Shown: piece after piece, positions 5,762 through 49,643 of the stretch
Numbering within the stretch: position 1 is the first letter of the stretch
Layout of the letters: the number at the start of each line of letters is the position of its first letter
DNA from: an uncultured Mucilaginibacter sp.
GTDB taxonomy: Bacteria > Bacteroidota > Bacteroidia > Sphingobacteriales > Sphingobacteriaceae
Length of the DNA stretch: 64,000 nucleotides
Direction: 5' to 3'
NCBI GenBank assembly: GCA_903891475.1
Contig: CAITEP010000010.1
Coordinates: 62,001-126,000, forward strand
Notes under the pieces: generated by a model
What the model was told of the DNA's origin: nothing
What the model saw: only the letters and a program-made list of their open reading frames with translations
The model's database searches: none
Made by a program: the position numbers and the translations under genes

Positions 5762-6856
5762 GTGATTATAGCCCTTTCTATTACCCTGTTTTTCCTCATA
5801 CTCCGCTTCACGGTTACGTTGTTTAATTATATATCGAACCCGAAACTAACCCGAGTTAGCAAACAATTTACCGATAAAGTATCTATTTTAATTCCTGCCC
5901 GAAACGAGGAAAAAAACATATTGAACCTACTTCAATCCATCGCTAAACAGGATTATAAAAATTATGAAGTCATCATTTATGATGATTGCTCTACAGATGG
6001 CACTTACCAGCTTTGTGCAAATTTCGCATCAAAACACCCCGCATTTAGTGTTGAAAAGGGAGAGCCGCTACCAATTGGGTGGACAGGTAAAAACTACGCG
6101 TGTGCGCAATTGGCTAAACAAGCTACCGGGAAATACTTTTTATTTTTAGATGCCGATACCAGCATTTTTAATGGCCTCATCAATAGCGCGGTACAACGGG
6201 CGCAATATTACAAATTGGCGTTGCTAAGCATATTCCCCGACCAAGAGATGGAAACAATAGGCGAAAAAACCACCGTTCCGCTGTTGCATTATTTACTTTT
6301 GAACCTGCTGCCCCTACGCCTTGTTTATTTATCAAGAAGCAGTTTGTTTGCCGTAGCTTGCGGTCAGCTTATGTTTTTTGACGCGGCTATCTATCGTAAA
6401 AAACAATGGCACCAATTGGTAAAAAGCAAGGTAGTAGAAGATGCCGAAATAATGAAAGCCATAAAATTAGAGGGCTATAAAGGCGAAGTATTATTGGCGA
6501 ACGAGATGGTAAAATGCCGCATGTATCATGGCTATTTTGAGGCTTTAAATGGCTTTAGCAAAAGTGCATTGGCCTTGCTTAATTATAGTATAACTGCCAT
6601 GTTGGTTTTTGTTACCATACTTTTTAGCGGGCCATTATTGGTAATAACTACCTTAAACCTCAGCCTCATTTTTTATATGCTAGGCCTCATTATGCTTAGC
6701 CGCATTATGGTATCGTTACAAACAAATCAAAACGCGTTACACAACATTGTTTTACACCCTTTGCAAATGGTAAACTTTATCATCATCGCTTTTTTAGCCA
6801 TACAAAGGCACCTCACCAAAACAAACTACTGGAAGGGAAGATCACTGAGCGAATAA
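5762..6856 (+). CDS. Membrane-bound family 2 glycosyltransferase
   Basis: A 364-residue GT-A glycosyltransferase with an N-terminal membrane helix, a catalytic domain of about residues 35-250 and two to three C-terminal membrane helices (about 275-345). VSILIPARNEEKNILNLL is the family opening. The metal-binding acidic cluster is DADTS, and the conserved late acidic site is VVEDAEIM. This topology resembles hydroxychlorobactene- or carotenoid-type glucosyltransferases (CrtQ-like) and lipid glycosyltransferases; the acceptor cannot be told. The start is GTG at 5762, chosen because it lies 15 nt after the waaA stop and gives the full hydrophobic anchor. Confidence 0.8.
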   Translation: MIIALSITLFFLILRFTVTLFNYISNPKLTRVSKQFTDKVSILIPARNEEKNILNLLQSIAKQDYKNYEVIIYDDCSTDGTYQLCANFASKHPAFSVEKGEPLPIGWTGKNYACAQLAKQATGKYFLFLDADTSIFNGLINSAVQRAQYYKLALLSIFPDQEMETIGEKTTVPLLHYLLLNLLPLRLVYLSRSSLFAVACGQLMFFDAAIYRKKQWHQLVKSKVVEDAEIMKAIKLEGYKGEVLLANEMVKCRMYHGYFEALNGFSKSALALLNYSITAMLVFVTILFSGPLLVITTLNLSLIFYMLGLIMLSRIMVSLQTNQNALHNIVLHPLQMVNFIIIAFLAIQRHLTKTNYWKGRSLSE

Positions 6857-6924
6857 TTTGCATGCGGTTTTTGTGGTTAATAAGTAAAATTAAATTATGG
6901 CTATGTTGTCGGATTGGCTTATAA

Positions 6925-6955
6925 TTGTTTAAATCATTTTATCCTATTAGTTTTG
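6925..6955 (+). promoter_or_regulatory. Promoter immediately ahead of ispH
   Basis: TTG at 6925-6927 and TAGTTTTG at 6948-6955 are spaced 20 nt apart and match the Bacteroidota -33/-7 pattern. The -7 element ends only 4 nt before the ATG at 6960. If used, transcription would start at or just around the start codon, giving a leaderless or nearly leaderless mRNA. No Shine-Dalgarno-like sequence is seen before this ATG. Confidence 0.4.
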
Positions 6956-6959
6956 TAGC

Positions 6960-7811
6960 ATGGGCACATACAATTTGCAGGTAACTATTGATTCCGATTC
7001 GGGCTTTTGCTTTGGCGTGGTATATGCCATTGACATGGCCGAAGAAATTTTGGAGGAGGATGGCTATTTATATTGCTTGGGCGATATTGTGCATAACGAT
7101 GAGGAGGTAGCCCGCCTAAAAGCAAAAGGCCTGCGCATTATTGAGCATGCCGAGCTTAAAAATTTAGCTAACGAAAAAGTACTGATTCGCGCGCATGGCG
7201 AAGCACCTGATACCTACCGCATCGCACTCGAAAACAATATTACCTTGATTGATGCCTCCTGTCCGGTTGTATTGAAACTTCAAAACCGCATCAAAACATC
7301 TTTCGACGCGAACGAGAAGATTTTGATTTTTGGTAAACATGGCCATGCCGAGGTAATTGGCCTGCAAGGACAAACAAATAATGAAGCCTTGGTTTTTGCC
7401 GACATTGCCGAACTAGATAATGTTGAGCTACCACAACAAATAACCCTTTATACGCAAACTACCAAAAGTATGGAGAAGTTTTACGATATAAAGGACCAAT
7501 TGATAGCTCGAGGCTATGACTTAAAAGCCAATGATACAATTTGCAGGCAAGTAAGCAACCGCGACCATGATTTGCCTAAGTTTGCGGTCAGGTTTGATAA
7601 AATAGTATTTGTATCGGGCAAAAAATCATCAAACGGAAAGGTTTTGTTTGAAGTTTGCCGTAAGCATAACCCCAATACCTATTTTGTTTCATCAACCGAT
7701 GAACTAAATCCAGAAATGTTTAACCCGGGCGATACCATTGGCATTGCCGGAGCAACTTCCACCCCCATGTGGTTAATGCAAGACGTTAAAGCTACTTTGG
7801 AGAGTTGGTGA
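6960..7811 (+). CDS. ispH: 4-hydroxy-3-methylbut-2-enyl diphosphate reductase
   Basis: Last enzyme of the methylerythritol phosphate pathway; an iron-sulfur protein that reduces HMBPP to isopentenyl and dimethylallyl diphosphate. The 283-residue protein has the three cluster cysteines at Cys17 (SGFCFGV), Cys101 (DASCPVV) and Cys195 (DTICRQ). It also shows the substrate-binding histidine motif GKHGHAEVIG (125-134) and the C-terminal GIAGATSTPMW. The start is fixed by the short N-terminus before SGFCFGV typical of the family. The gene appears to be alone: waaA and the glycosyltransferase lie upstream across a 100-nt gap with its own promoter, and a low-complexity spacer separates it from hemH. 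Confidence 0.95.
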   Translation: MGTYNLQVTIDSDSGFCFGVVYAIDMAEEILEEDGYLYCLGDIVHNDEEVARLKAKGLRIIEHAELKNLANEKVLIRAHGEAPDTYRIALENNITLIDASCPVVLKLQNRIKTSFDANEKILIFGKHGHAEVIGLQGQTNNEALVFADIAELDNVELPQQITLYTQTTKSMEKFYDIKDQLIARGYDLKANDTICRQVSNRDHDLPKFAVRFDKIVFVSGKKSSNGKVLFEVCRKHNPNTYFVSSTDELNPEMFNPGDTIGIAGATSTPMWLMQDVKATLESW

Positions 7812-38484: not shown

Positions 38485-39177
38485 CTAATTTACAGTAAAT
38501 TGATACAATCCCGAATCGGAGGTATCGCCGTTTTGGTTTTTGGTTATTACTTTCCAATAATAGGTGGTTCCTGAGCTTACTGTCACATTGTTCAAAAACT
38601 GATCGGTTATGCCCGTAGCTACTTTTGCCGGATTATTGGTGGTATCAAAGTATACATCATAGCCTGCAATGGTACTTGGTGGTGCGATACTGCCCGTCCA
38701 GGTGAGGTTTATTTTTCCTGAGGTAGCCGTAACAGTTTGGGCAAACAAAGGCGCGGTAATGGTTGCCGGATATGGCGGATAAGAAATTGCTCCGGCTCCG
38801 GCATTATAAAACTTCCAAATATCACTTTTGGCTGTTGTTGTTGTTAGACTGGATATCGATACTACATACCATGAATAGGGCACGCCTCGCAATAAGGTTA
38901 GGGTGGCTGTAGGCAAGGTAGTGCTGGTGATGGTTGAATCTTTAGTCAATAAATTCTTTACTACCAGGGTATAGCTGTTTGTGTTGCTTCCTGCCGCCCA
39001 ACTAAAAGCGATGGAGCTTTGCGTGGTAGAAAGTATGGTGCCCGTGGTACAAACCTGGTTTTGTGCCGGAGCTGATAAGCTTGCTGCCGTTGGTGGTGGT
39101 GTTGGGTTATTGTTTTTTCCACCTCCACCACATGCAGCCAATAATACTGCTGAAAAAATAACTATCGCTTGTTTCAT
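38485..39177 (-). CDS. Lipoprotein with two fibronectin type III-like domains
   Basis: A 230-residue surface lipoprotein: lipobox LLAAC (Cys16) followed by a glycine run and a proline-rich linker (GGGGKNNNPTPPPT). Two beta-sandwich repeats follow (about 35-130 and 135-230), each with the Ser-x-Trp and Tyr-x-Trp pattern of FN3 folds (ISLTWTG / TTYYWKVITKNQNGDTSDSG). The glycine run after the Cys is similar to export signals for surface lipoproteins, an inference. Its ATG shares a base with the stop of the giant NHL gene upstream, so the two are co-expressed and possibly interact. Confidence 0.75.
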   Translation of the reverse strand: MKQAIVIFSAVLLAACGGGGKNNNPTPPPTAASLSAPAQNQVCTTGTILSTTQSSIAFSWAAGSNTNSYTLVVKNLLTKDSTITSTTLPTATLTLLRGVPYSWYVVSISSLTTTTAKSDIWKFYNAGAGAISYPPYPATITAPLFAQTVTATSGKINLTWTGSIAPPSTIAGYDVYFDTTNNPAKVATGITDQFLNNVTVSSGTTYYWKVITKNQNGDTSDSGLYQFTVN

Positions 39178-42100
39178 TACTTTATAATTTTAAACTCTTT
39201 TTTGGTGTTGTTAATCATCAGTTGTAAGCCATAGGCTCCTTTTTGAAGTTTTGATAAGTCGAGCTGCAATACACCCGATTGGTTTTGGTAATCGGCCGTG
39301 AATACCTGCAAACCGGTGTTCGTGCTATAAATCCTCACACTTACTGTGGCTATATTGCTGCTGCCTAAATTCAAATTCAAGGTGCTCTCAAATGGCATAG
39401 GGTAGGGCGATATATTAAACGAAGGATTGATGAGTTTGGTAAACACGCCCTGGCATTCCCTATCTGTTGTTACTTGTAAAGCATTGTTACCGGGTTCCAG
39501 TGGCACTGTAAAATTATTTTCGGTTGTGGTATAGGCTTTGTTATTTAGTTGTATATGATAAACTGAGCCTCCGTTTAAAGCTAATTCAATATTACCTGCT
39601 GCTTCATTAACCGTTGCGAATACTGATAAGGGTTGTGGTTGAGTAATAGTAAGGGTGTAGGTATTACTATAGTTTGCCTGCCCATCAACCGTAAAAGTTA
39701 AAGTATAGGTACCTACCGGCAGGTTGTTAAAAGTAGCTGTACTGGTAAACTTTTGAGTATTGTTTATACTGTTGCCGCTTAAAACAGCGGTATAATTATT
39801 GTTGGCTGCTGCCGTAACTGCTATGGTACCATTGCTGCTGCCGTTGCAAGTTTCGCCGGTTATGGTGATGTTATAGTTGGTTGATGGTAGGGTAAAAATA
39901 TTATTTACAGCTATTATTGTATACGTTTGGGTGGTTATACCATCCTGAGCGGTAACAATAATACGAATAGGATTATTGCTAACATTCAGATTAGTGCTAA
40001 AAGGTATGCCTGATGGGGCAATTTGGCCATTAATATGCATGGTTGCATTTACATCGGTAAGCGTAGGTGTAAACGTAATGCCACCTGTTATACTACTCAT
40101 GGTTACTGTATAGTCATTTTTATCTGACGAGAAAGATGGACTAAGCACACCTGCATTAAATGTGAGATTACTTAATGATGCAATGCTACTGGCAGCTCTA
40201 GTAACTGTAAGATTATACGTTTGAACAGTGGTTTCGTCTTGTGCTGTTACAATAATAGCAATGATATTGTCGCCCACACTTAATGGAATGTTTGCCGTTG
40301 CGGTACCAGACAATACGGCTATTCCATTTACTGTAATTTTGTTTCCAATATCTGAAAGTAAGGGTGTTAATGTAATACTGCTTATAGCATTACTTACATC
40401 TGCTTTATAGTTGAGGATATTTGACGCGAAAGTTGGACTAAGCGTACCATTACTAATGGAAAGACTACTTAATGTTACATCGATATTCTTAAGCCTGTTA
40501 ACTGTAAGCGTATAGGCTTGCGTAGTAACGCCATCTTGTGCTGTTACATTTATCAATAAGTCATTTATACCAAATGCCAACCCTGTGAATGTATAAGAAG
40601 CACCTCTTGCCACAACGTTTCCATTTACTGTTACCGTCGCGTTTGGGTCGGTAGTGATTGGTGTTATGGTTATGCTATCGGTATTACTGCTTACATCGGG
40701 TGTTGCATAAGTTGTGTTTCCCGGCGAAAAGCCGGGTGACAGTGCGCCATTGCTGGCCATTAAACTACTTAATGTTGCATCAAAACCGACAGATCTGATA
40801 ATAGAAAGTGTATATGTTTGTTGAGTAGAATTGTCTTGTGAAATTACAACAACATCAATGGTATTGCTGCCAACATTCAGCGGGATGGTTGAAGATGCTG
40901 AACCTGAAAGCACTCTTATTCCATTTACTTTTATAATCGAGTTAACATCGGTAGCGGTAGGTGTAACTGTTGCGTTCGTAACAAAGTAGGGCACACTTGC
41001 AGTATAGCTGTATGTGTTTGCGTTAAATTCAGGGCTAATGGCACCTGAACTTATACTGAGGTTATATAAACTTGCATCTGCACTATACGGCCTAATAATG
41101 GATAGCGTATAGGTTTGAGTAGTAGTACCGTCTTGAGCGGTTACAACAATTGAAATAATATTATTTCCAAAATTTAATGGAAAGTTAACAGTTGCAGTAC
41201 CCGAGATTGATACAATACCGTTTATTTTGATGATAGCATTTGTATCTGTAGTGGTTGGTGTAAGCGAAATACTTGTAACGGCGCTGCTTACGATGTCGTT
41301 ATAGTTAAGCGTTGTTGATGTAAAAGAAGGACTAAGTACACCTGCACTTATGGTAAGGCTACTTAAACTAGCATCATTGGATGAGGAAATCACTTCCAAA
41401 TTAAAAGTCGCGTTACTAACACCGGCTAAATTATAAGCGCTAACTGTAAAAGTTGTTGATGGAAATACTACATTTGGCGTACCATTTATAGTGCCTGTGG
41501 TTGCATCAAAACTAAGTCCGTCAGGTAATGCGGGACTAATAGTATAACCAGTTATGATAACTTTACGAATAACATTGGTATACGCGTCGGCAACGTAAAG
41601 ATTGCCTGTTCCATCATTCGCCAGTGCATAAGGGGCATAAAAACTCGCGGCAATACCTATGCCATCAACTAAATCCGAGTTACCATTCCCTGCAATGGTA
41701 CTTACTAAGCCTGTTTTATCTATTTTCCGAATAAGGTTATTATATGCGTCGGCAACGTAAACATTGCCCGCGAAATCGGTGGCTACACCTGCAGGCTGAT
41801 AAAAGCTTGCCGATGTTCCAATACCATTTGCAGATCCTATTGTCCCATTGCCGGCTAATGTTGTTACAATGCCCGTTGGGTCTATCTTTCGCACACTTTC
41901 ATTGCCCACGTCTCCAACATATACATTACCTGCCGCATCTGTGGCGATACCTATCGGACTATTAAAGCTTGCGCCCGTTCCTGTACCATTGCTTTGACCC
42001 GCATTGCCACTACCCGCCAACGTAGTTACTACTCCTGCAGGTGTTATTTTACGGATCAGGTTATTGCCATTGTCGGCCACATAAATATTCCCTAACAAAT

Positions 42101-44879
42101 CGGTAGCGATGCCCCTGGGATTATTAAAACTTGCATTTGTGCCTGTGCCATTGCTTTTACCAGCAACGCCCAAAGTGCCAGCAAGTGTGCTAACCATTCC
42201 TGAGGGAGTTATTTTCCGTATAGTTTTGTTTCCATAATCTGTTACATAAAAATATCCTGAAGCATCGATAGCTATACCCTTTAGGTCATTAAAGCTTGCC
42301 GATGTTCCTTGTCCGTCGGACGAACCAGGGTTTAATCCTCCTGCAAAGACACTTACTACGCCTGATGGCGTTATTTTCTGAATTAGATTGCTTTGATTTG
42401 TTATCCAATAAACATTACCGGCAGCGTCTACCGCTACACTTATTGGTACTGTTGAAGATGTTGCGCTTAGGCTGCTTACCTGCCCATAGGTGTTTGCCGG
42501 CACTGCCCCTCCTGTATTAGTTGGGCTTAGAGGTGTTATAGCCTTATTTACGCTATATTTTTGTGGCGTTTTATAGGTTATTATTGGCGCTGAGGGTAAA
42601 CTTACAGCGATACTTACCGTTGTCGAGCTGCTACCATATTGATTATAGGCTGTTATAGTATAATTTGTTGCCGGGCTTACCGCTATAGGTATGCCGCTAA
42701 TGATACCTGTTGCAGCATCAATATTTAAACCTAAAGGTAATGATGGGCTAATGGTATAACCAGTAAGCGGAATTTTGTAAATAGTACCATTTGAAGCCAC
42801 GTATAAATTCCCCAAAGCATCAAGATTAAGACCTGTTATATTATAATTTGTATTTGAATCAAATTTTAACAAGGTGGTAACAACTGCTTTCGAGTCAATT
42901 TTGCGAATCTCACTAGACCATTGATCACCAACGTAAATATTACCCGAATCATCCACGGCAATACCAGTTGGATTCGCAAAGCTTGCTGCTTTTCCTACTC
43001 CATCCACAGAACCTAAATTTCCATTACCAGCCAGAGTTGTTACCTCTCCATTTGGCGTAATTTTACGAATCAGGTTACTAACTGCATCGGATGCATAAAG
43101 GTTTCCCACTTCATCAAGAGCTAAGCCTGTTACGTATGAAAAACTTGCCGCTGCGCCTAAACCGTCGGCCGATCCGTAAGTATTGCTACCTGCCAGAGTT
43201 GTTACTACACCATTAGGGTCAATTTTACGAATCACAGGGGTTTGTTCTCCAACATAAATATTGCCTGCCGCGTCAGCAGTAAGGGTTTTCGGATTATTAA
43301 AGCTTGCTTCAGTACCTGTTCCGTTAATTGTTGTTTGATAGCCATTGCCTGCAAAAGTGCTTACTACTCCGGCGGGTGTTATTTTACGGATAAGGTTATT
43401 TCCTTCATCAGCTACATAAATATTGTTCGCCGCATCAAGTGCTAAACTATAAGGATAATAAAAACTAGCTTCTGTACCTGTCCCGTTCGCAGCGCCAACA
43501 GCGCCACTTCCTGCCAATGTAGTTACTACTCCCGCTGGTGTTATTTTACGGATAAGGTTATCAAAGCAATCGGCGATATAAATATTTCCTGATGCATCCG
43601 AAACACCTGTAGTAATTCTGGAGAAATAGGCTGAGCTTCCGGTTCCATCCACCTGTCCAAAAGCTCCGCTACCTGCAAAGGTAGTTACATTACCAACGGG
43701 GTCAATTTTACGGATTAAGTTGTTGTTTTCATCAGCTACATAAACGTTCCCAGCAGCATCAGCAGTTAGTCTATTGGGGAAATTAAAACTTGCGGACGCG
43801 CTATTGCCATTTGCCGACCCTTTTACTCCGCTTCCTGCTAAGGTGGTTACCATACCGGTAGGGTCAATTTTACGTATTTGGTTATTATATTGATCCACAA
43901 CATATACATTACCTAAAGCATCAGTGGCAACATCATTTGGATAATTAAAGGTTGCAGAGGCCCCAATTCCATTGTTACTACCAAGATTGCCGCTACCCGC
44001 CAAAGTTGTAACTACGCCTGTAGGTGTAATTTTACGTATACAGTTGTTGCTAAAATCAGCTACATAAACATTACCTGCAGCATCGGTTGCCAAACCATTC
44101 GGATAACTAAAGCTTGCAGCGGTACCTGTTCCATCGATATGCCCTCTCGTGCCACTACCGGCAAATGTTGTTACTATGCCTGAGGGGTCAATTTTACGGA
44201 TCAGGTCATTATTCGGATCGGCTACATAAACATTTCCAGCAGCATCGGTTGCTATACCAGTTGGATTCTCAAAACTTGCGAAGGTACCTACTGCATTGTC
44301 ACTACCGGAAAGGCCGCTACCTGCCAAGGTTGTTACCTCACCTTGAGGGGTTATTTTACGGATTAGGTTATTACCACTGTCTGAAACGTACAAATTGCCA
44401 GCAGTATCGGATGCCAAACCAAGCGGATAATTAAAGCTCGCGGCTGTTCCTATTCCATTGTTTGAGCCAGGTATTCCACTACCCGCAAAGGTTGTTACCA
44501 CTCCACCTGGGGTTATTTTACGGATTACGTTTTCGTAAGTAGATGCAACATAAATATTACCCGATTTATCAGCAGCAATGGCTACAGGATTTGCAAAGGT
44601 TGAAGCATTAGCAGAACCATTATTTGGAATTAAAGGGCCACCACCTGCCAATAAATCTGCTTGGCCGTAACCCTTTGTTGGTACAACGCCACCTGTATTG
44701 GTAGGGCTTAATAACGTTATATTTTTGCCTAAAGTAAAAGTTTGGGAAACAGGGTAGCTAATATTGGGCGCCTGAGCCAATAACAAAACAGGTAAAGTCA
44801 GTATTAGTGCTGCTAATAGGTATTTATTACTTTTAATAAAACCTTGGTGGTTATTTTTTTTATAGTAGATTATCTCCAT
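39177..44879 (-). CDS. Giant secreted NHL-repeat / Ig / cadherin-like protein with T9SS sorting domain
   Basis: A 1900-residue exported protein. A signal peptide (about 18-36) is followed by the start of an Ig-like domain (about 39-70), a block of about 12 NHL units (about 75-705; unit core AGNVYVADxxNNLIRKITP), and the rest of that Ig domain (TISPSLPLGLNIDAATG, about 708-760). A second Ig half (about 765-800), six NHL units (about 800-1110) and Ig tail (to about 1160) repeat the plan. Then come five cadherin-like beta-sandwich repeats of about 97 residues (1161-1660; each starts like DASLSSLTISAGVLSP and ends TTQTYTLSIIR), another beta domain, and a type A T9SS C-terminal domain (about 1823-1900, ending YGLQLMINNTKKEFKIIK). 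NHL units form propellers. It is probably a surface-attached or secreted binding protein; the ligand is unknown. Confidence 0.85.
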   Translation of the reverse strand: MEIIYYKKNNHQGFIKSNKYLLAALILTLPVLLLAQAPNISYPVSQTFTLGKNITLLSPTNTGGVVPTKGYGQADLLAGGGPLIPNNGSANASTFANPVAIAADKSGNIYVASTYENVIRKITPGGVVTTFAGSGIPGSNNGIGTAASFNYPLGLASDTAGNLYVSDSGNNLIRKITPQGEVTTLAGSGLSGSDNAVGTFASFENPTGIATDAAGNVYVADPNNDLIRKIDPSGIVTTFAGSGTRGHIDGTGTAASFSYPNGLATDAAGNVYVADFSNNCIRKITPTGVVTTLAGSGNLGSNNGIGASATFNYPNDVATDALGNVYVVDQYNNQIRKIDPTGMVTTLAGSGVKGSANGNSASASFNFPNRLTADAAGNVYVADENNNLIRKIDPVGNVTTFAGSGAFGQVDGTGSSAYFSRITTGVSDASGNIYIADCFDNLIRKITPAGVVTTLAGSGAVGAANGTGTEASFYYPYSLALDAANNIYVADEGNNLIRKITPAGVVSTFAGNGYQTTINGTGTEASFNNPKTLTADAAGNIYVGEQTPVIRKIDPNGVVTTLAGSNTYGSADGLGAAASFSYVTGLALDEVGNLYASDAVSNLIRKITPNGEVTTLAGNGNLGSVDGVGKAASFANPTGIAVDDSGNIYVGDQWSSEIRKIDSKAVVTTLLKFDSNTNYNITGLNLDALGNLYVASNGTIYKIPLTGYTISPSLPLGLNIDAATGIISGIPIAVSPATNYTITAYNQYGSSSTTVSIAVSLPSAPIITYKTPQKYSVNKAITPLSPTNTGGAVPANTYGQVSSLSATSSTVPISVAVDAAGNVYWITNQSNLIQKITPSGVVSVFAGGLNPGSSDGQGTSASFNDLKGIAIDASGYFYVTDYGNKTIRKITPSGMVSTLAGTLGVAGKSNGTGTNASFNNPRGIATDLLGNIYVADNGNNLIRKITPAGVVTTLAGSGNAGQSNGTGTGASFNSPIGIATDAAGNVYVGDVGNESVRKIDPTGIVTTLAGNGTIGSANGIGTSASFYQPAGVATDFAGNVYVADAYNNLIRKIDKTGLVSTIAGNGNSDLVDGIGIAASFYAPYALANDGTGNLYVADAYTNVIRKVIITGYTISPALPDGLSFDATTGTINGTPNVVFPSTTFTVSAYNLAGVSNATFNLEVISSSNDASLSSLTISAGVLSPSFTSTTLNYNDIVSSAVTSISLTPTTTDTNAIIKINGIVSISGTATVNFPLNFGNNIISIVVTAQDGTTTQTYTLSIIRPYSADASLYNLSISSGAISPEFNANTYSYTASVPYFVTNATVTPTATDVNSIIKVNGIRVLSGSASSTIPLNVGSNTIDVVVISQDNSTQQTYTLSIIRSVGFDATLSSLMASNGALSPGFSPGNTTYATPDVSSNTDSITITPITTDPNATVTVNGNVVARGASYTFTGLAFGINDLLINVTAQDGVTTQAYTLTVNRLKNIDVTLSSLSISNGTLSPTFASNILNYKADVSNAISSITLTPLLSDIGNKITVNGIAVLSGTATANIPLSVGDNIIAIIVTAQDETTVQTYNLTVTRAASSIASLSNLTFNAGVLSPSFSSDKNDYTVTMSSITGGITFTPTLTDVNATMHINGQIAPSGIPFSTNLNVSNNPIRIIVTAQDGITTQTYTIIAVNNIFTLPSTNYNITITGETCNGSSNGTIAVTAAANNNYTAVLSGNSINNTQKFTSTATFNNLPVGTYTLTFTVDGQANYSNTYTLTITQPQPLSVFATVNEAAGNIELALNGGSVYHIQLNNKAYTTTENNFTVPLEPGNNALQVTTDRECQGVFTKLINPSFNISPYPMPFESTLNLNLGSSNIATVSVRIYSTNTGLQVFTADYQNQSGVLQLDLSKLQKGAYGLQLMINNTKKEFKIIK

Positions 44880-47681: not shown

Positions 47682-47721
47682 AATTTTAACTGGAAGCAAA
47701 TAACTGCCTCCAGTTAAAATT
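47682..47721 (-). terminator. Terminator after the Ro60/Y-RNA unit
   Basis: A perfect 13-bp inverted repeat: AATTTTAACTGGA (47682-47694) with TCCAGTTAAAATT (47709-47721), with a few extra pairs inside the loop (GCA/TGC). On the minus strand it is followed by TTATGTTTTT. It lies 9 nt past the second Y-like RNA and upstream of the carboxylesterase gene, so it fits as the end of the rsr-Y RNA transcript. Confidence 0.8.
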
Positions 47722-47730
47722 AGTTATTAA

Positions 47731-47827
47731 AAAGAAGGGTAACAAGCAATAAGCCTTCTAATTGTCCGAAGCTATTGTCCGGGTTCGATTGTGAGCCGAA
47801 GCAAGGCTTATTTACGACACCTTCTTT
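47731..47827 (-). ncRNA. Y-like RNA 2 (short, second of tandem pair)
   Basis: About 97 nt on the minus strand. The ends pair perfectly: AAAGAAGG (47827-47820) with CCTTCTTT (47738-47731). Next, the 5' strand has TGTCGTA and the 3' strand GCTTGTTAC as an asymmetric internal region, and then a perfect 10-bp inner helix AATAAGCCTT with AAGGCTTATT (47812-47803 with 47757-47748). The same layout and the same motifs occur in Y-like RNA 1 upstream, which is strong internal evidence for a conserved RNA. The apical part (47802-47758) has two GCTTCGG segments (UUCG tetraloop-like) and the sequence TCGAACCC, complementary to a tRNA T-loop. It is located directly 3' of a Ro60 gene, as expected for Y RNAs. 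Ends are inferred from pairing. Confidence 0.75.
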
Positions 47828-47835
47828 TATTTTTT

Positions 47836-47959
47836 AAGGAGCAACAAGCAAAATGAGCCAGATGATTTGCTTTTTGGGACTCGAACCCACAGCATGATTT
47901 GCACCACACTGCCCTCACCTTTGAATGGTAGCGAAGTAACTCATTTTTACGACATCCTT
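47836..47959 (-). ncRNA. Y-like RNA 1 with tRNA-like module (YrlA type)
   Basis: About 124 nt on the minus strand, in the space 3' of the Ro60 gene. The ends pair as AAGGA (47959-47955) with TCCTT (47840-47836). An asymmetric internal region follows with TGTCGTA on the 5' strand and GCTTGTTGC on the 3' strand, then a perfect inner helix AAAATGAG? read as CTCATTTT (47857-47850) with its partner (47947-47940). The apical part holds a D-arm-like hairpin (GGCA with TGCT, 47913-47891, loop containing GG) directly followed by a T-arm-like hairpin, stem TGGG/CCCA around the canonical loop TTCGAGT (47889-47875). Known bacterial Y RNAs of the YrlA type bind Ro60 through the terminal stem and mimic tRNA in the other module. 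It could also be called a degenerate tRNA, but no acceptor stem exists. Confidence 0.78.
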
Positions 47960-47967
47960 AATTTTTT

Positions 47968-47998
47968 AAAAGTATGGGCACCGGATGGCCCATCTTTT
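47968..47998 (-). terminator. Hairpin directly after the rsr stop codon
   Basis: AAAAG plus ATGGGC pair with GCCCAT plus CTTTT around an 8-nt loop, with one bulged base, starting 3 nt after the rsr stop on the minus strand. It ends in CTTTT then TTTTAAAAAA-like sequence. It could be a partial terminator or a processing/stabilising hairpin between the mRNA and the Y-like RNAs, for which no separate promoter was found. Confidence 0.65.
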
Positions 47999-48001
47999 AA
48001 T

Positions 48002-49576
48002 TTATAATTCTATATTATTGATCATATCCAAAGCTACTCCTCCGTTTTCGATAGCATCCAGCGCTTCAAAAACCTTATCGCTCCAGCCTGCAATCAGGTA
48101 AACCCCGTTGCTCAATATTTGTAATGGTGATACTCCGTATCCCTGCAAATCAAACAGGTATAACCTGGCATTCGGAGATACCTTCTCCTTGTATCGTTGC
48201 CAAAGTGTTTGGATTCGTTCCGAAGGGTAATTACTATTCCATAACTGAGTATCGGTAAACATAAAAATCTTATCCATTTTTACCTTACGCGTCAATAAAT
48301 CTTTAATAACTTTATAACCATTGGTACTATAGCCAACTTCGCCTTCACGTCTATAAAATGTTTGTACATTATCCAAAATATTTTTACGCGGTACGGTAAT
48401 GGTTTTCCAAGTACGCCCAAACATACCCACTTCCACATTTTTGCATCGTGTTTGCAACAGCATGGCCAGCATCAAACCAATATCGTACAAAAGTATTTGC
48501 GATTTTGCAGAAACAGGTGTTTGCATGGAGCCCGAAACATCACAAGCCAACAATACACGCGTATCATAATCAAAGCCTTTGATACTTGCTGCAGTTGCCC
48601 GTACCGCATTTTCTAAAGCATCTAGCAATTCGCCTGTAAAACCATAGTTTTGACAGTGTAATACTGGCCCTCTGTTTTTTCGTGTAGCCCTTCCATATTT
48701 TTTATTACGCGGACTCAGCAATTCCCTGTAGGCTGCCAAGTAACGAAATGGAAATTGCTTTGCCTTGGCAACCTCTTCAGGATCAGCCAAGCGAGCGCAA
48801 ACCTTTTCGAGGTGAAAATAACTAATACCAGCTTCCTGCATGTTGCATAAATTACGCAACATGGCCATGTAACCTAACTTACCACTATCAATCAGCTCCT
48901 CCCACTTTTGTCGAAAGGCCAATATTTTCAGCTCATCTGTCTCAAAATCTACTTTACCTAAAGCCGATAGTGTTGTTTCCCAAGTATAAGGTGTTTCTAA
49001 ACTACCACTTGCAATTTTGTTAAAAATTAATTTCTGCCTATCATCTTTAGCCTTTGGGTGAACCAAAAACAAGGCATCGCGTAGCTTAATATCACCATCC
49101 CGATTATATTTAGCAAATTGATACTCATCAAACTTATTAAATGCCAGAGCCAATCCCTTTTGAATTTGCTTTGATAACCTGTTAAGCTTTTTACTAGCTG
49201 TTCGTTCATTCAGCAATTGGTAGCAAGCCAATAGTTCTGTAATTTCATCGGCACGCAAAATTACCGCATCGGTAGCTAGCGCAATCAAATTATCGCCATT
49301 GTGCAATTTGGCCAACTCTGTAATTAAAACCAATGGTACCGAGCGTATATACATTTTAGTACGGGCGTATACCGCAAGTTTAGCCACAAATAAAGGTTTG
49401 CAGTTAGCAATTAAAACCTGCAAACGGTTTAAACGTTGTTCGTCTTTTTCATAAAACGAATCATTTAGGCTCCAGGTAACCACCGCTGTATAAAGCTCCA
49501 TTTCGGGGCTAAGCGTAAAAGCGGTAGAACCTTCATGGTTAACCGTTTTATTTTTGCTTAATATGTTGAACTTCAT
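48002..49576 (-). CDS. rsr: Ro60 orthologue: TROVE and von Willebrand factor A domain protein (Rsr)
   Basis: Bacterial Ro60. It is a ring-shaped RNA-binding protein that holds Y RNAs on its outer surface and can tether exoribonucleases for RNA degradation and stress recovery. The 524-residue protein has an N-terminal TROVE HEAT-repeat ring (about 15-335; typical segments KYNRDGDIKLRDALFLVHPK, GYMAMLRNLCNM and FPFRYLAAY) and a C-terminal vWA domain (about 340-500) with the MIDAS residues Asp346, Ser348, Ser350 (ACDVSGSMQT), Thr418 and Asp442 (FTDTQLW). ATG 49576 was chosen over 49606 because it begins the conserved N-terminus. Neighbours are not the usual rtcB/rtcA RNA-repair genes. Two Y-like RNAs follow on the same strand. 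Confidence 0.92.
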   Translation of the reverse strand: MKFNILSKNKTVNHEGSTAFTLSPEMELYTAVVTWSLNDSFYEKDEQRLNRLQVLIANCKPLFVAKLAVYARTKMYIRSVPLVLITELAKLHNGDNLIALATDAVILRADEITELLACYQLLNERTASKKLNRLSKQIQKGLALAFNKFDEYQFAKYNRDGDIKLRDALFLVHPKAKDDRQKLIFNKIASGSLETPYTWETTLSALGKVDFETDELKILAFRQKWEELIDSGKLGYMAMLRNLCNMQEAGISYFHLEKVCARLADPEEVAKAKQFPFRYLAAYRELLSPRNKKYGRATRKNRGPVLHCQNYGFTGELLDALENAVRATAASIKGFDYDTRVLLACDVSGSMQTPVSAKSQILLYDIGLMLAMLLQTRCKNVEVGMFGRTWKTITVPRKNILDNVQTFYRREGEVGYSTNGYKVIKDLLTRKVKMDKIFMFTDTQLWNSNYPSERIQTLWQRYKEKVSPNARLYLFDLQGYGVSPLQILSNGVYLIAGWSDKVFEALDAIENGGVALDMINNIEL

Positions 49577-49603: not shown

Positions 49604-49643
49604 CAAAGTAAATGAGGCGCTACGCAGCCTATCTGCGCAGATA
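49604..49643 (-). promoter_or_regulatory. rsr promoter region with a perfect 14-bp palindrome
   Basis: A near-consensus -7 element TTACTTTG (minus strand, 49611-49604) is 28-35 nt upstream of the rsr ATG. Just upstream, at 49630-49643, is the perfect palindrome TATCTGCGCAGATA, at about the -26 to -39 position relative to the presumed start. GC-centred palindromes at that place are typical operators. Which protein binds is unknown. Confidence 0.45.

What the first reader, a model, noticed from the sequence alone, without database searches (positions are those of the whole stretch)
47731..49576. Bacterial Ro60 with two tandem Y-like RNAs in a Bacteroidota genome
The Ro60 gene is followed on the same strand by two RNA-like segments (47959-47836 and 47827-47731) only 8 nt apart. 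Both show end helices, the shared motifs TGTCGTA (5' strand) and GCTTGTT (3' strand) flanking an asymmetric internal region, and a perfect inner helix (8 and 10 bp) whose sequences differ between the copies while pairing is kept. That is covariation between paralogues. The locus lacks the usual rtcB/rtcA partners. The system looks like a self-contained Ro60 ribonucleoprotein unit with two different RNA partners.
Basis: partly seen in the sequence, partly recalled or inferred. Interest (0 to 1): 0.88.

Follow-up and report, generated by a model that had tools for sequence, protein, structure and literature searches.

The report
Ro60 gene with paired Y RNAs
A Mucilaginibacter-type bacterium carries a gene for a Ro60-like RNA quality-control protein followed by two predicted small folded RNAs, most like the first two members of an ordered set of up to eight such RNAs in its relatives, and a DNA site found in its genome only here and beside an RNA-repair ligase gene would likely switch both on together, which makes it testable why one protein needs so many RNA partners.

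Summary
Two Y-like RNA genes (47834-47961 and 47730-47828, minus strand) follow an Ro60/Rsr gene. The pairing claim is confirmed far beyond two paralogues: 98 of 103 distinct rsr genes in related Bacteroidota are followed by 1-8 units with the same stem (418 units). The control stretches gave hits only in three loci whose array lies upstream of rsr. RNA1 carries a tRNA-type T-arm; its type stands first in 31 of the 51 nearest arrays. RNA2 carries a plain hairpin. Those 51 arrays hold 13 recurrent RNA types in conserved order, some of them YrlA-like tRNA mimics; this genome has two RNAs. In 149 genomes of the genus a covariance model of the first type finds array RNAs in 50 of 51 genomes with near full-length rsr and 0 of 91 without any. 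Most likely this is a bacterial Ro60 RNP under WYL control, in which a common stem docks interchangeable RNA modules on Rsr. Expression, Rsr binding, operator binding and effectors are untested. New variant of a known kind.

The parts
48002..49576 (-). rsr, Ro60-type ring protein (TROVE + vWA), 524 aa, ATG start
   Evidence: Pfam; profile of 22 homologues matches Ro60 1yvp, RO60 9nen and D. radiodurans Rsr 2nvo
49620..49640 (.). inverted repeat CTGCGCA-GATAGGC-TGCGTAG, predicted operator, 43 nt before the rsr start codon
   Evidence: one of two sites in the genome; 92 of 100 rsr homologues have it within 350 nt upstream at up to 2 mismatches
47834..47961 (-). Y-like RNA 1 (128 nt), first-in-array type with T-arm
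   Evidence: covariance model R1 113 bits, E 7.9e-23, only hit in own genome (RNA1 was one of the 30 training sequences); 17 of 32 predicted pairs with compensatory change
47948..47954 (-). RNA1 5' strand motif UGUCGUA (predicted Rsr docking site, predicted bulged C)
47841..47849 (-). RNA1 3' strand motif GCUUGUUGC
47875..47889 (-). RNA1 tRNA-type T-arm UGGGUUCGAGUCCCA
   Evidence: position; alignment A1 and consensus fold
47890..47911 (-). RNA1 hairpin directly before the T-arm
   Evidence: consensus fold; position
47730..47828 (-). Y-like RNA 2 (99 nt), same stem, hairpin module without T-arm
   Evidence: nearest relatives are mostly second-position units of other arrays
47813..47819 (-). 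RNA2 5' strand motif UGUCGUA
47739..47747 (-). RNA2 3' strand motif GCUUGUUAC
47974..47993 (.). hairpin between the rsr stop and RNA1; terminator-like by the scan on the + strand only (on - its tail has four T)
47682..47721 (-). 18-bp terminator-like hairpin with T tail after RNA2 (likely end of the transcript)

Best explanation
The window encodes a bacterial Ro60 protein (Rsr) followed by two structurally conserved Y-type RNA genes, which likely form Ro60 ribonucleoproteins and are predicted to be controlled together with the RNA ligase RtcB by a WYL-domain regulator. Shown from sequence: each RNA has the same two-helix stem around UGYCGUA/GNYYNUYRC; the stem covaries across hundreds of units; relatives carry ordered arrays of up to eight such RNAs; the repeat before rsr has one other copy in the genome, between rtcB and the WYL gene. 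Inferred: the common stem docks each RNA on the outer face of the Rsr ring; the variable inner module (T-arm plus hairpin in RNA1, plain hairpin in RNA2) recruits or gates a partner, with PNPase the likeliest by analogy with Deinococcus; rsr and its RNAs are made as one transcript and cut apart in the short linkers; the WYL protein senses nucleic-acid damage and releases or activates both promoters, so that damaged RNA is either re-ligated by RtcB or steered by Rsr into decay. This genome likely descends from an ancestor with a longer array next to rtcB and has lost most RNA types and the linkage, but kept the repeat at both places.
For: 98 of 103 distinct rsr genes are followed by 1-8 units, 418 in all; 14 control hits in 925,134 bases, all in three Emticicia loci whose array lies upstream. 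Independent-helix test 79.8% vs 39-49% slid and 56.6% reshuffled. Without demanding the letters, the C of the motif is C in 229 of 233 units, and the Y-R pair is CG 117, TA 85, TG 24 of 233. First-type RNAs: 17 of 32 pairs compensatory in 30 sequences. YrlA-like: 27 of 31 pairs compensatory in 34 sequences. Linked inheritance: model R1 (which also picks other array units at lower score) hits 50 of 51 genomes with near full-length rsr, 2 of 7 with rsr remnants, 0 of 91 without (Fisher 7e-38 for 50/51 vs 0/91). Thirteen recurrent RNA types, 335 of 347 pair placements in the same order. Repeat: exactly two sites in 3.96 Mb at up to 1 mismatch, both perfect, at rsr and between rtcB and the WYL/WCX gene; 92 of 100 rsr homologues against 0 of 500 base-shuffled upstream stretches; 19 of 98 array loci, all in the identity band of Flavobacterium, have it again between rsr and the array; 77 of 149 genomes have an exact site, 1 of 149 for the reversed pattern. 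WYL gene in 50 of 51 rsr-bearing against 33 of 98 other genomes. PNPase and RtcB genes are in the genome. In L103, array units alternate with tRNA genes at 0-8 nt spacing, as expected of one processed transcript.
Against: No expression, binding or processing data. Window RNA1 and RNA2 score 0.47 and 0.51 against their nearest units, below the 0.55 cut used to define groups, so their assignment rests on nearest neighbours and position and, for RNA1, on model R1, which was trained with it. The window RNAs have no Rfam match. RNA2 has no T-arm and one change in the UACUUCG motif (UGCUUCG). A hairpin lies between rsr and RNA1, which may weaken read-through. The repeat pattern was written after looking at the rsr upstream stretches and the rtcB site, so 92 of 100 is a description, not an independent test; at up to 2 mismatches 55 more matches lie elsewhere in the same loci (779,789 bases), some of them before rtcB or the array. 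Exact sites also occur in 28 of 98 genomes without near full-length rsr, and two rsr-bearing genomes (G002, G116) have none. Only 20 of 40 WYL and 12 of 27 testable rtcB starts have the site within 250 nt. That the WYL protein binds the site is inferred from adjacency. The reversed control pattern also has one site in the own genome at up to 1 mismatch.
Confidence: 0.77

Rival explanations
1. The RNAs are Rsr-bound but act as competitors or gates only: they cap the ring or sponge tRNA-modifying or tRNA-cutting enzymes through the T-arm and do not tether PNPase.
For: Only the T-arm, sometimes with a D-arm, is recognisably tRNA-like; 95 of 98 arrays have at least one T-arm unit. [quoted passage not shown]
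Against: The Deinococcus precedent is a tether (PMC4726728 and PMC8394870, passages). Short and hairpin classes have no recognised tRNA likeness.
Confidence: 0.3
2. The two hairpins are 3' UTR or terminator structures or attenuators of rsr mRNA, not separate RNAs.
For: They begin 40 nt after the rsr stop, with a hairpin before and a terminator-like hairpin after.
Against: Units repeat up to eight times, in 13 ordered types, in three loci lie upstream of rsr, in one locus alternate with tRNA genes, and in two genomes persist beside rsr remnants.
Confidence: 0.06
3. RNA2 is a decaying pseudogene and only RNA1 is a working Y RNA in this genome.
For: No T-arm, altered UACUUCG motif, few module letters shared with the 12-member hairpin group.
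Against: Its stem is perfect (9 and 10 bp) and both motif strands are intact; hairpin-type units are kept in 12 other loci, second in 9 of them.
Confidence: 0.25
4. The inverted repeat belongs to a broader stress regulator unrelated to the WYL gene, which merely has a site nearby.
For: Exact sites occur in 28 of 98 genomes without near full-length rsr, not always next to WYL (for example G001).
Against: In several genomes the site lies within about 150 nt before the WYL start: G023 and G044 with rsr, G058, G006, G018 and G066 without; WYL and rsr co-occur in 50 of 51.
Confidence: 0.25

Closest known systems
YrlA (RF02553), bacterial tRNA-mimicking Y RNA of rsr operons
   Same: Next to rsr, paired ends, and in relatives a permuted tRNA-like module (T-arm, closed acceptor-like stem, D-arm). 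In e-value mode Rfam places RF02553 in the array region of 10 of 11 loci, scores 29.5-46.8 (E up to 0.05, 4 of 5 loci, E up to 1, 6 of 6).
   Different: All below the gathering score of 69; window RNAs give no match; RNA1 has a T-arm but no recognised D-arm; arrays hold several types at once.
Deinococcus radiodurans Y RNA (RF01053)
   Same: First-type unit of L116 aligns over the full model including the T-arm, the closing helix and a UACUUC-like stretch (34.2 bits, E 3.1e-4 in 701 nt, 0.025 in 57,596 bases).
   Different: Below the gathering score of 80, found in 1 of 11 loci searched in e-value mode, none in the window.
Salmonella rsr-yrlBA-rtcBA RNA repair operon with RtcR
   Same: Rsr, more than one Y RNA, RtcB in one regulon; regulator with a ligand-sensing domain (PMC7790460 passages).
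   Different: Here a WYL/WCX regulator gene and an inverted repeat in place of RtcR (inferred); more RNAs in relatives; in the window genome split over two contigs.
Vertebrate Y RNAs
   Same: Lower stem with a bulged cytidine as Ro60 site (PMC4726728, PMC4030889 passages).
   Different: No sequence homology shown here; different modules.

Membership tests
Ro60/Rsr protein family | TROVE domain plus vWA domain | tested here: met
   PF05731 1.1e-30, PF25045 2.3e-8, both over cut-off; profile matches 1yvp, 9nen, 2nvo
Ro60/Rsr protein family | NCBI equivalog NF041674 (RNA-bind_Rsr) | tested here: not met
   41.1 bits against a cut-off of 900: a divergent branch
Bacterial Y RNA (kind) | gene adjacent to rsr and inherited with it | tested here: met
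Bacterial Y RNA (kind) | 5' and 3' ends pair in a stem with a Ro60-type site containing a bulged C | tested here: met
   stem and covariation; that the C is bulged is inferred from the pairs on either side
Bacterial Y RNA (kind) | bound by Rsr | not testable with these tools
   needs co-purification
YrlA (RF02553) | T-arm | tested here: met
   RNA1 only; RNA2 not
YrlA (RF02553) | D-arm after the T-arm | tested here: not met
   neither window RNA (pattern test); met by 117 of 418 units, none of them in the window
YrlA (RF02553) | Rfam gathering score | tested here: not met
Deinococcus Y RNA (RF01053) | match to the Rfam model | tested here: inconclusive
   no match in the window; one relative of RNA1 at E 3.1e-4 in 701 nt
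RNA repair operon (rsr-Y-rtcB) | rtcB in the same operon | tested here: not met
   rtcB is on another contig
RNA repair operon (rsr-Y-rtcB) | common control with rtcB | tested here: inconclusive
   same perfect repeat at both; binding untested
RNA repair operon (rsr-Y-rtcB) | rtcA present | not tested
   -

The most novel reading that the evidence does not exclude
Bacteroidota run a multi-adaptor Ro60 system: one Rsr ring is served by an ordered cassette of up to eight interchangeable Y RNAs (13 recurrent types in this clade, Deinococcus-like and YrlA-like side by side), each with its own effector module, all switched on with RtcB through a WYL regulator and a 21-bp operator. In this genome the cassette is stripped to two RNAs and separated from rtcB, but still belongs to the same two-site regulon.
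Probability: 0.5. Interest if true: 0.85.

Novelty: new variant of a known kind. Interest (0 to 1): 0.7.

Why it matters
Why Ro60 proteins use several Y RNAs is an open question. Here the same stem carries thirteen recurrent module types, kept nearly always one per array in a fixed order, with a two-RNA array in this genome. That makes the question directly testable: delete or swap modules and ask which protein partner is lost. The repeat also gives a concrete candidate regulator of Ro60 and RtcB together.

Tried and rejected
Rfam on the window at gathering score and up to E = 10 for the locus: nothing relevant. At gathering score 20 relatives' loci gave only tRNAs. RF02553 in the own genome: none; seven of its 14 control genomes ring below cut-off, so weak hits of that model are not specific. 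The first scan rule (exact motif pairs) missed many units; the helix-based scan replaced it. In one search, 49 motif heads without an acceptable helix were dropped (my sum of its listing: 418 kept of 467); 23 of the 103 loci hold only about 1.5 kb of flank, so their counts are lower bounds. In one search, 410 heads had a unique best outer helix and 370 distinct ones were counted. The A1 set was picked by a rule that demanded a G-run and the T-arm, so conservation of those two is partly by selection; the search with R1 then found hits of 60 bits or more in 45 of 70 loci outside the training set (my count). Of 255 units in the 51 nearest loci, 211 fall in the 13 groups; 44, the window's two among them, do not. 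A 12-bp palindrome alone was not significant in the window and not found near rtcB; the longer inverted repeat is the shared element. RF01053 support rests on one locus of 11. I looked for a print description of such arrays in Bacteroidota in the held library (searches; listings, and passages of the papers cited) and saw none, but five key papers (Chen 2013, Chen 2014, Sim and Wolin 2018, Wang 2018, Sim 2020) are not held. From recall, the 2014 abstract reports likely Y RNAs near Ro60 in more than 250 bacteria and phages with at least one tRNA-like Y RNA per species, so parts of this may be in print. A guessed DOI gave an unrelated paper. No structure was predicted.
Full report
WHAT IS THERE. 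The minus strand of the window holds, in order, an inverted repeat (49640-49620), rsr (49576-48002), a hairpin (47993-47974), RNA1 (47961-47834), a 5-nt linker, RNA2 (47828-47730) and a strong terminator-like hairpin (47721-47682). The upstream neighbour is rnc (RNase III, Pfam), then an ORF that reads as fabF (by eye); the downstream neighbour is a carboxylesterase. Rsr has the TROVE and Ro60 vWA domains. A profile of 22 homologues reaches Ro60 (1yvp), RO60 (9nen) and D. radiodurans Rsr (2nvo) among solved structures. It is far below the cut-off of the NCBI Rsr equivalog, so it is a divergent branch. Genomes of the same genus coincide in coordinates with named Mucilaginibacter records, hence the genus name; it is inferred.

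IS IT MORE THAN CHANCE. Single-sequence folding is only suggestive (z -2.98 and -2.37). I therefore collected rsr loci: 58 of 149 genomes of the genus have a match, 42 of 301 drawn from the family, and 80 loci with names came from the genome collection (the best 80 of 254). These give 103 distinct rsr genes. A scan for the motif head plus an outer and an inner helix finds 418 units after 98 of the 103 genes, 1-8 per locus, median 4. Of the five without units, L085 ends at the match; L102, L114 and L115 (Emticicia) have the array upstream; L106 has none in the 3,500 nt scanned. The same scan on upstream DNA (both strands) and on the antisense of the flanks, 925,134 bases, gives 14 hits, all in those three Emticicia loci.

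COVARIATION. Choosing each 3' end on the outer helix alone leaves the inner helix as an independent test: 79.8% paired over 370 distinct units, against 39-49% when slid and 56.6% when arms are reshuffled. The pair next to the internal loop is C-G in 200, U-A in 106 and U-G in 35 of 370. When the motif letters are not demanded at all (233 units, anchored on UAC[A/U]UC and helices), the fourth letter is C in 229, the neighbouring G-C pair holds in 227, and the following G faces U in 184 and C in 17. Two Watson-Crick pairs, an unpaired C, then G-U: this is the layout described for Ro60 sites, where a bulged cytidine is the primary contact and is retained in bacterial Y RNAs (PMC4030889 and PMC4726728, passages read). 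That the C is bulged here is inference from the pairs around it.

CLASSES. By pattern, the 418 units are: T-arm without D-arm 172, T-arm then D-arm 117, short stem-loops of 61-84 nt 82, others 41, D-arm only 6. 95 of the 98 arrays have at least one T-arm unit. The T-then-D units look like circularly permuted tRNA mimics of YrlA kind: 27 of 31 consensus pairs have compensatory changes in 34 sequences. In e-value mode Rfam puts YrlA in the array region of 4 of 5 loci and 6 of 6 loci, each below gathering score; at gathering score 20 relatives' loci gave tRNAs only. RNA1 belongs with the first-in-array type: closing helix, hairpin, T-arm (17 of 32 pairs compensatory, 30 sequences including RNA1). 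Its model R1 scores 60 bits or more in 45 of 70 loci outside the training set (my count), including Flavobacterium and Spirosoma. One of these, in L116, aligns end to end with the D. radiodurans Y RNA model (E 3.1e-4 in 701 nt), which ties RNA1 to the Y RNA whose tethering role is known, through one locus of 11 only. RNA2 has the common stem and a hairpin without T-arm; its nearest relatives are mostly hairpin-type second units.

ORDERED SETS. In the 51 loci closest to the window, pairwise comparison gives 13 groups of at least four members (211 of 255 units), nearly always one copy per array (36 in 36 loci, 32 in 31, 22 in 22 and so on), and pairs of groups seen together at least five times keep the same order in 335 of 347 placements. 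Over all loci, 402 of 411 units with siblings have a better match in another locus than in their own array. So the RNAs are old, individually kept types, not fresh duplicates. The two window units are nearest to group A (first in 31 of its 36 loci) and group G (second in 9 of its 12) but fall under the 0.55 cut (0.47, 0.51); the assignment is therefore by nearest neighbour and position. R1 finds no further copy in the genome, and the scan of the flank finds two units.

LINKED INHERITANCE. In 149 genomes of the genus, R1 (E up to 1e-4) hits 50 of 51 with near full-length rsr (the miss, G098, is cut by a contig end), 2 of 7 with rsr remnants (G016, G064) and 0 of 91 without rsr. In a few of the 50 (for example G015, G026, G032) the best hit is a weaker one of 47-56 bits, likely another array type, so this counts arrays, not the first type alone.

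REGULATION. In relatives, rtcB (37 of 103 loci) and this WYL gene (40 of 103) lie within the held flanks of rsr, in Pedobacter loci L053 and L071 as WYL | rtcB - rsr - array. Upstream stretches of rsr share CTRCGCA-N7-TGCGYAG: 92 of 100 testable rsr genes, 0 of 500 base-shuffled stretches; the pattern was written from these stretches and the rtcB site, so this describes rather than tests. The window genome has exactly two sites at up to one mismatch, both perfect: before rsr and between rtcB and WYL; the reversed pattern has one at up to one mismatch. Across the genus 77 of 149 genomes have an exact site against 1 of 149 for the reversed pattern; by my count 49 of 51 rsr-bearing and 28 of 98 others (test). 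The WYL protein occurs in 50 of 51 rsr-bearing genomes (missing in G074, 71% complete) and 33 of 98 others, two of the latter only 39% identical. In 19 of 98 array loci, all in the identity band of Flavobacterium, the site occurs again between rsr and the array, which points to direct control of the RNAs. WYL domains are predicted to sense nucleotides or nucleic-acid fragments, and RtcR carries a divergent CARF sensor (PMC4012209, passages); a WYL protein in the RtcR role is my inference.

HOW IT LIKELY WORKS. By precedent, D. radiodurans Rsr is tethered by Y RNA to PNPase for decay of structured RNA, and YrlA binds Rsr by its basal stem (PMC7790460, PMC8394870, PMC4726728; passages). PNPase is encoded here. 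I infer that the common stem docks each RNA on Rsr, that the module chooses the partner or gates the ring, and that WYL raises rtcB and rsr together after nucleic-acid damage. Units are separated by a median of 10 nt (241 of 320 linkers at most 30 nt), and in L103 they alternate with tRNA genes at 0-8 nt spacing, so I infer one precursor cut into pieces. The hairpin between rsr and RNA1 is terminator-like by the scan only on the other strand; its role is unexplained.

VERDICT. Observation confirmed; interpretation partly supported and enlarged. Kind: bacterial Ro60 with Y RNAs, known. Variant: ordered multi-RNA arrays with both known RNA types and a WYL-type repeat shared with rtcB, split in this genome. 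The main papers could not be read, so novelty is stated with that reserve.

Noticed in passing
L103:6640-7661: Y-like units alternate with tRNA genes (Asp, Pro, Lys, Asn by ARAGORN, one more at 6920-6991 by Rfam) at 0-8 nt spacing on the same strand. ARAGORN's fifth call (6768-6854) overlaps a Y-like unit. The record is titled Williamsia, though its rsr resembles Bacteroidota ones (likely mis-binned).
   Followed up: partly
window 47932-47938 (RNA1) and 47797-47803 (UGCUUCG in RNA2): A UACUUCG heptamer directly after the inner helix recurs in all unit classes but lies in no consensus helix; a similar UUaCuuC stretch shows in the RF01053 consensus. The scan demanded most of it, so its conservation is partly by selection. 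Unexplained.
   Followed up: partly
G016:C22:689248-691083 and G064:C2:93263-94249: Array RNAs persist beside rsr remnants, as if the protein gene decays before the RNAs.
   Followed up: partly
L102, L114, L115 upstream of rsr: In Emticicia the Y-like array lies upstream of rsr instead of downstream.
   Followed up: no
L052:7054-7229: A YrlA-like unit of Mucilaginibacter segetis has an insertion of about 44 nt inside the T-loop.
   Followed up: no
L076-L100 (Flavobacterium), about 15 nt after rsr: A second copy of the repeat sits between rsr and the array, suggesting the array has its own promoter there.
   Followed up: partly
window 39177-44879: A 1900-aa protein of repeated NHL-like and beta-sandwich-like segments (by eye) near the locus; not analysed.
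   Followed up: no
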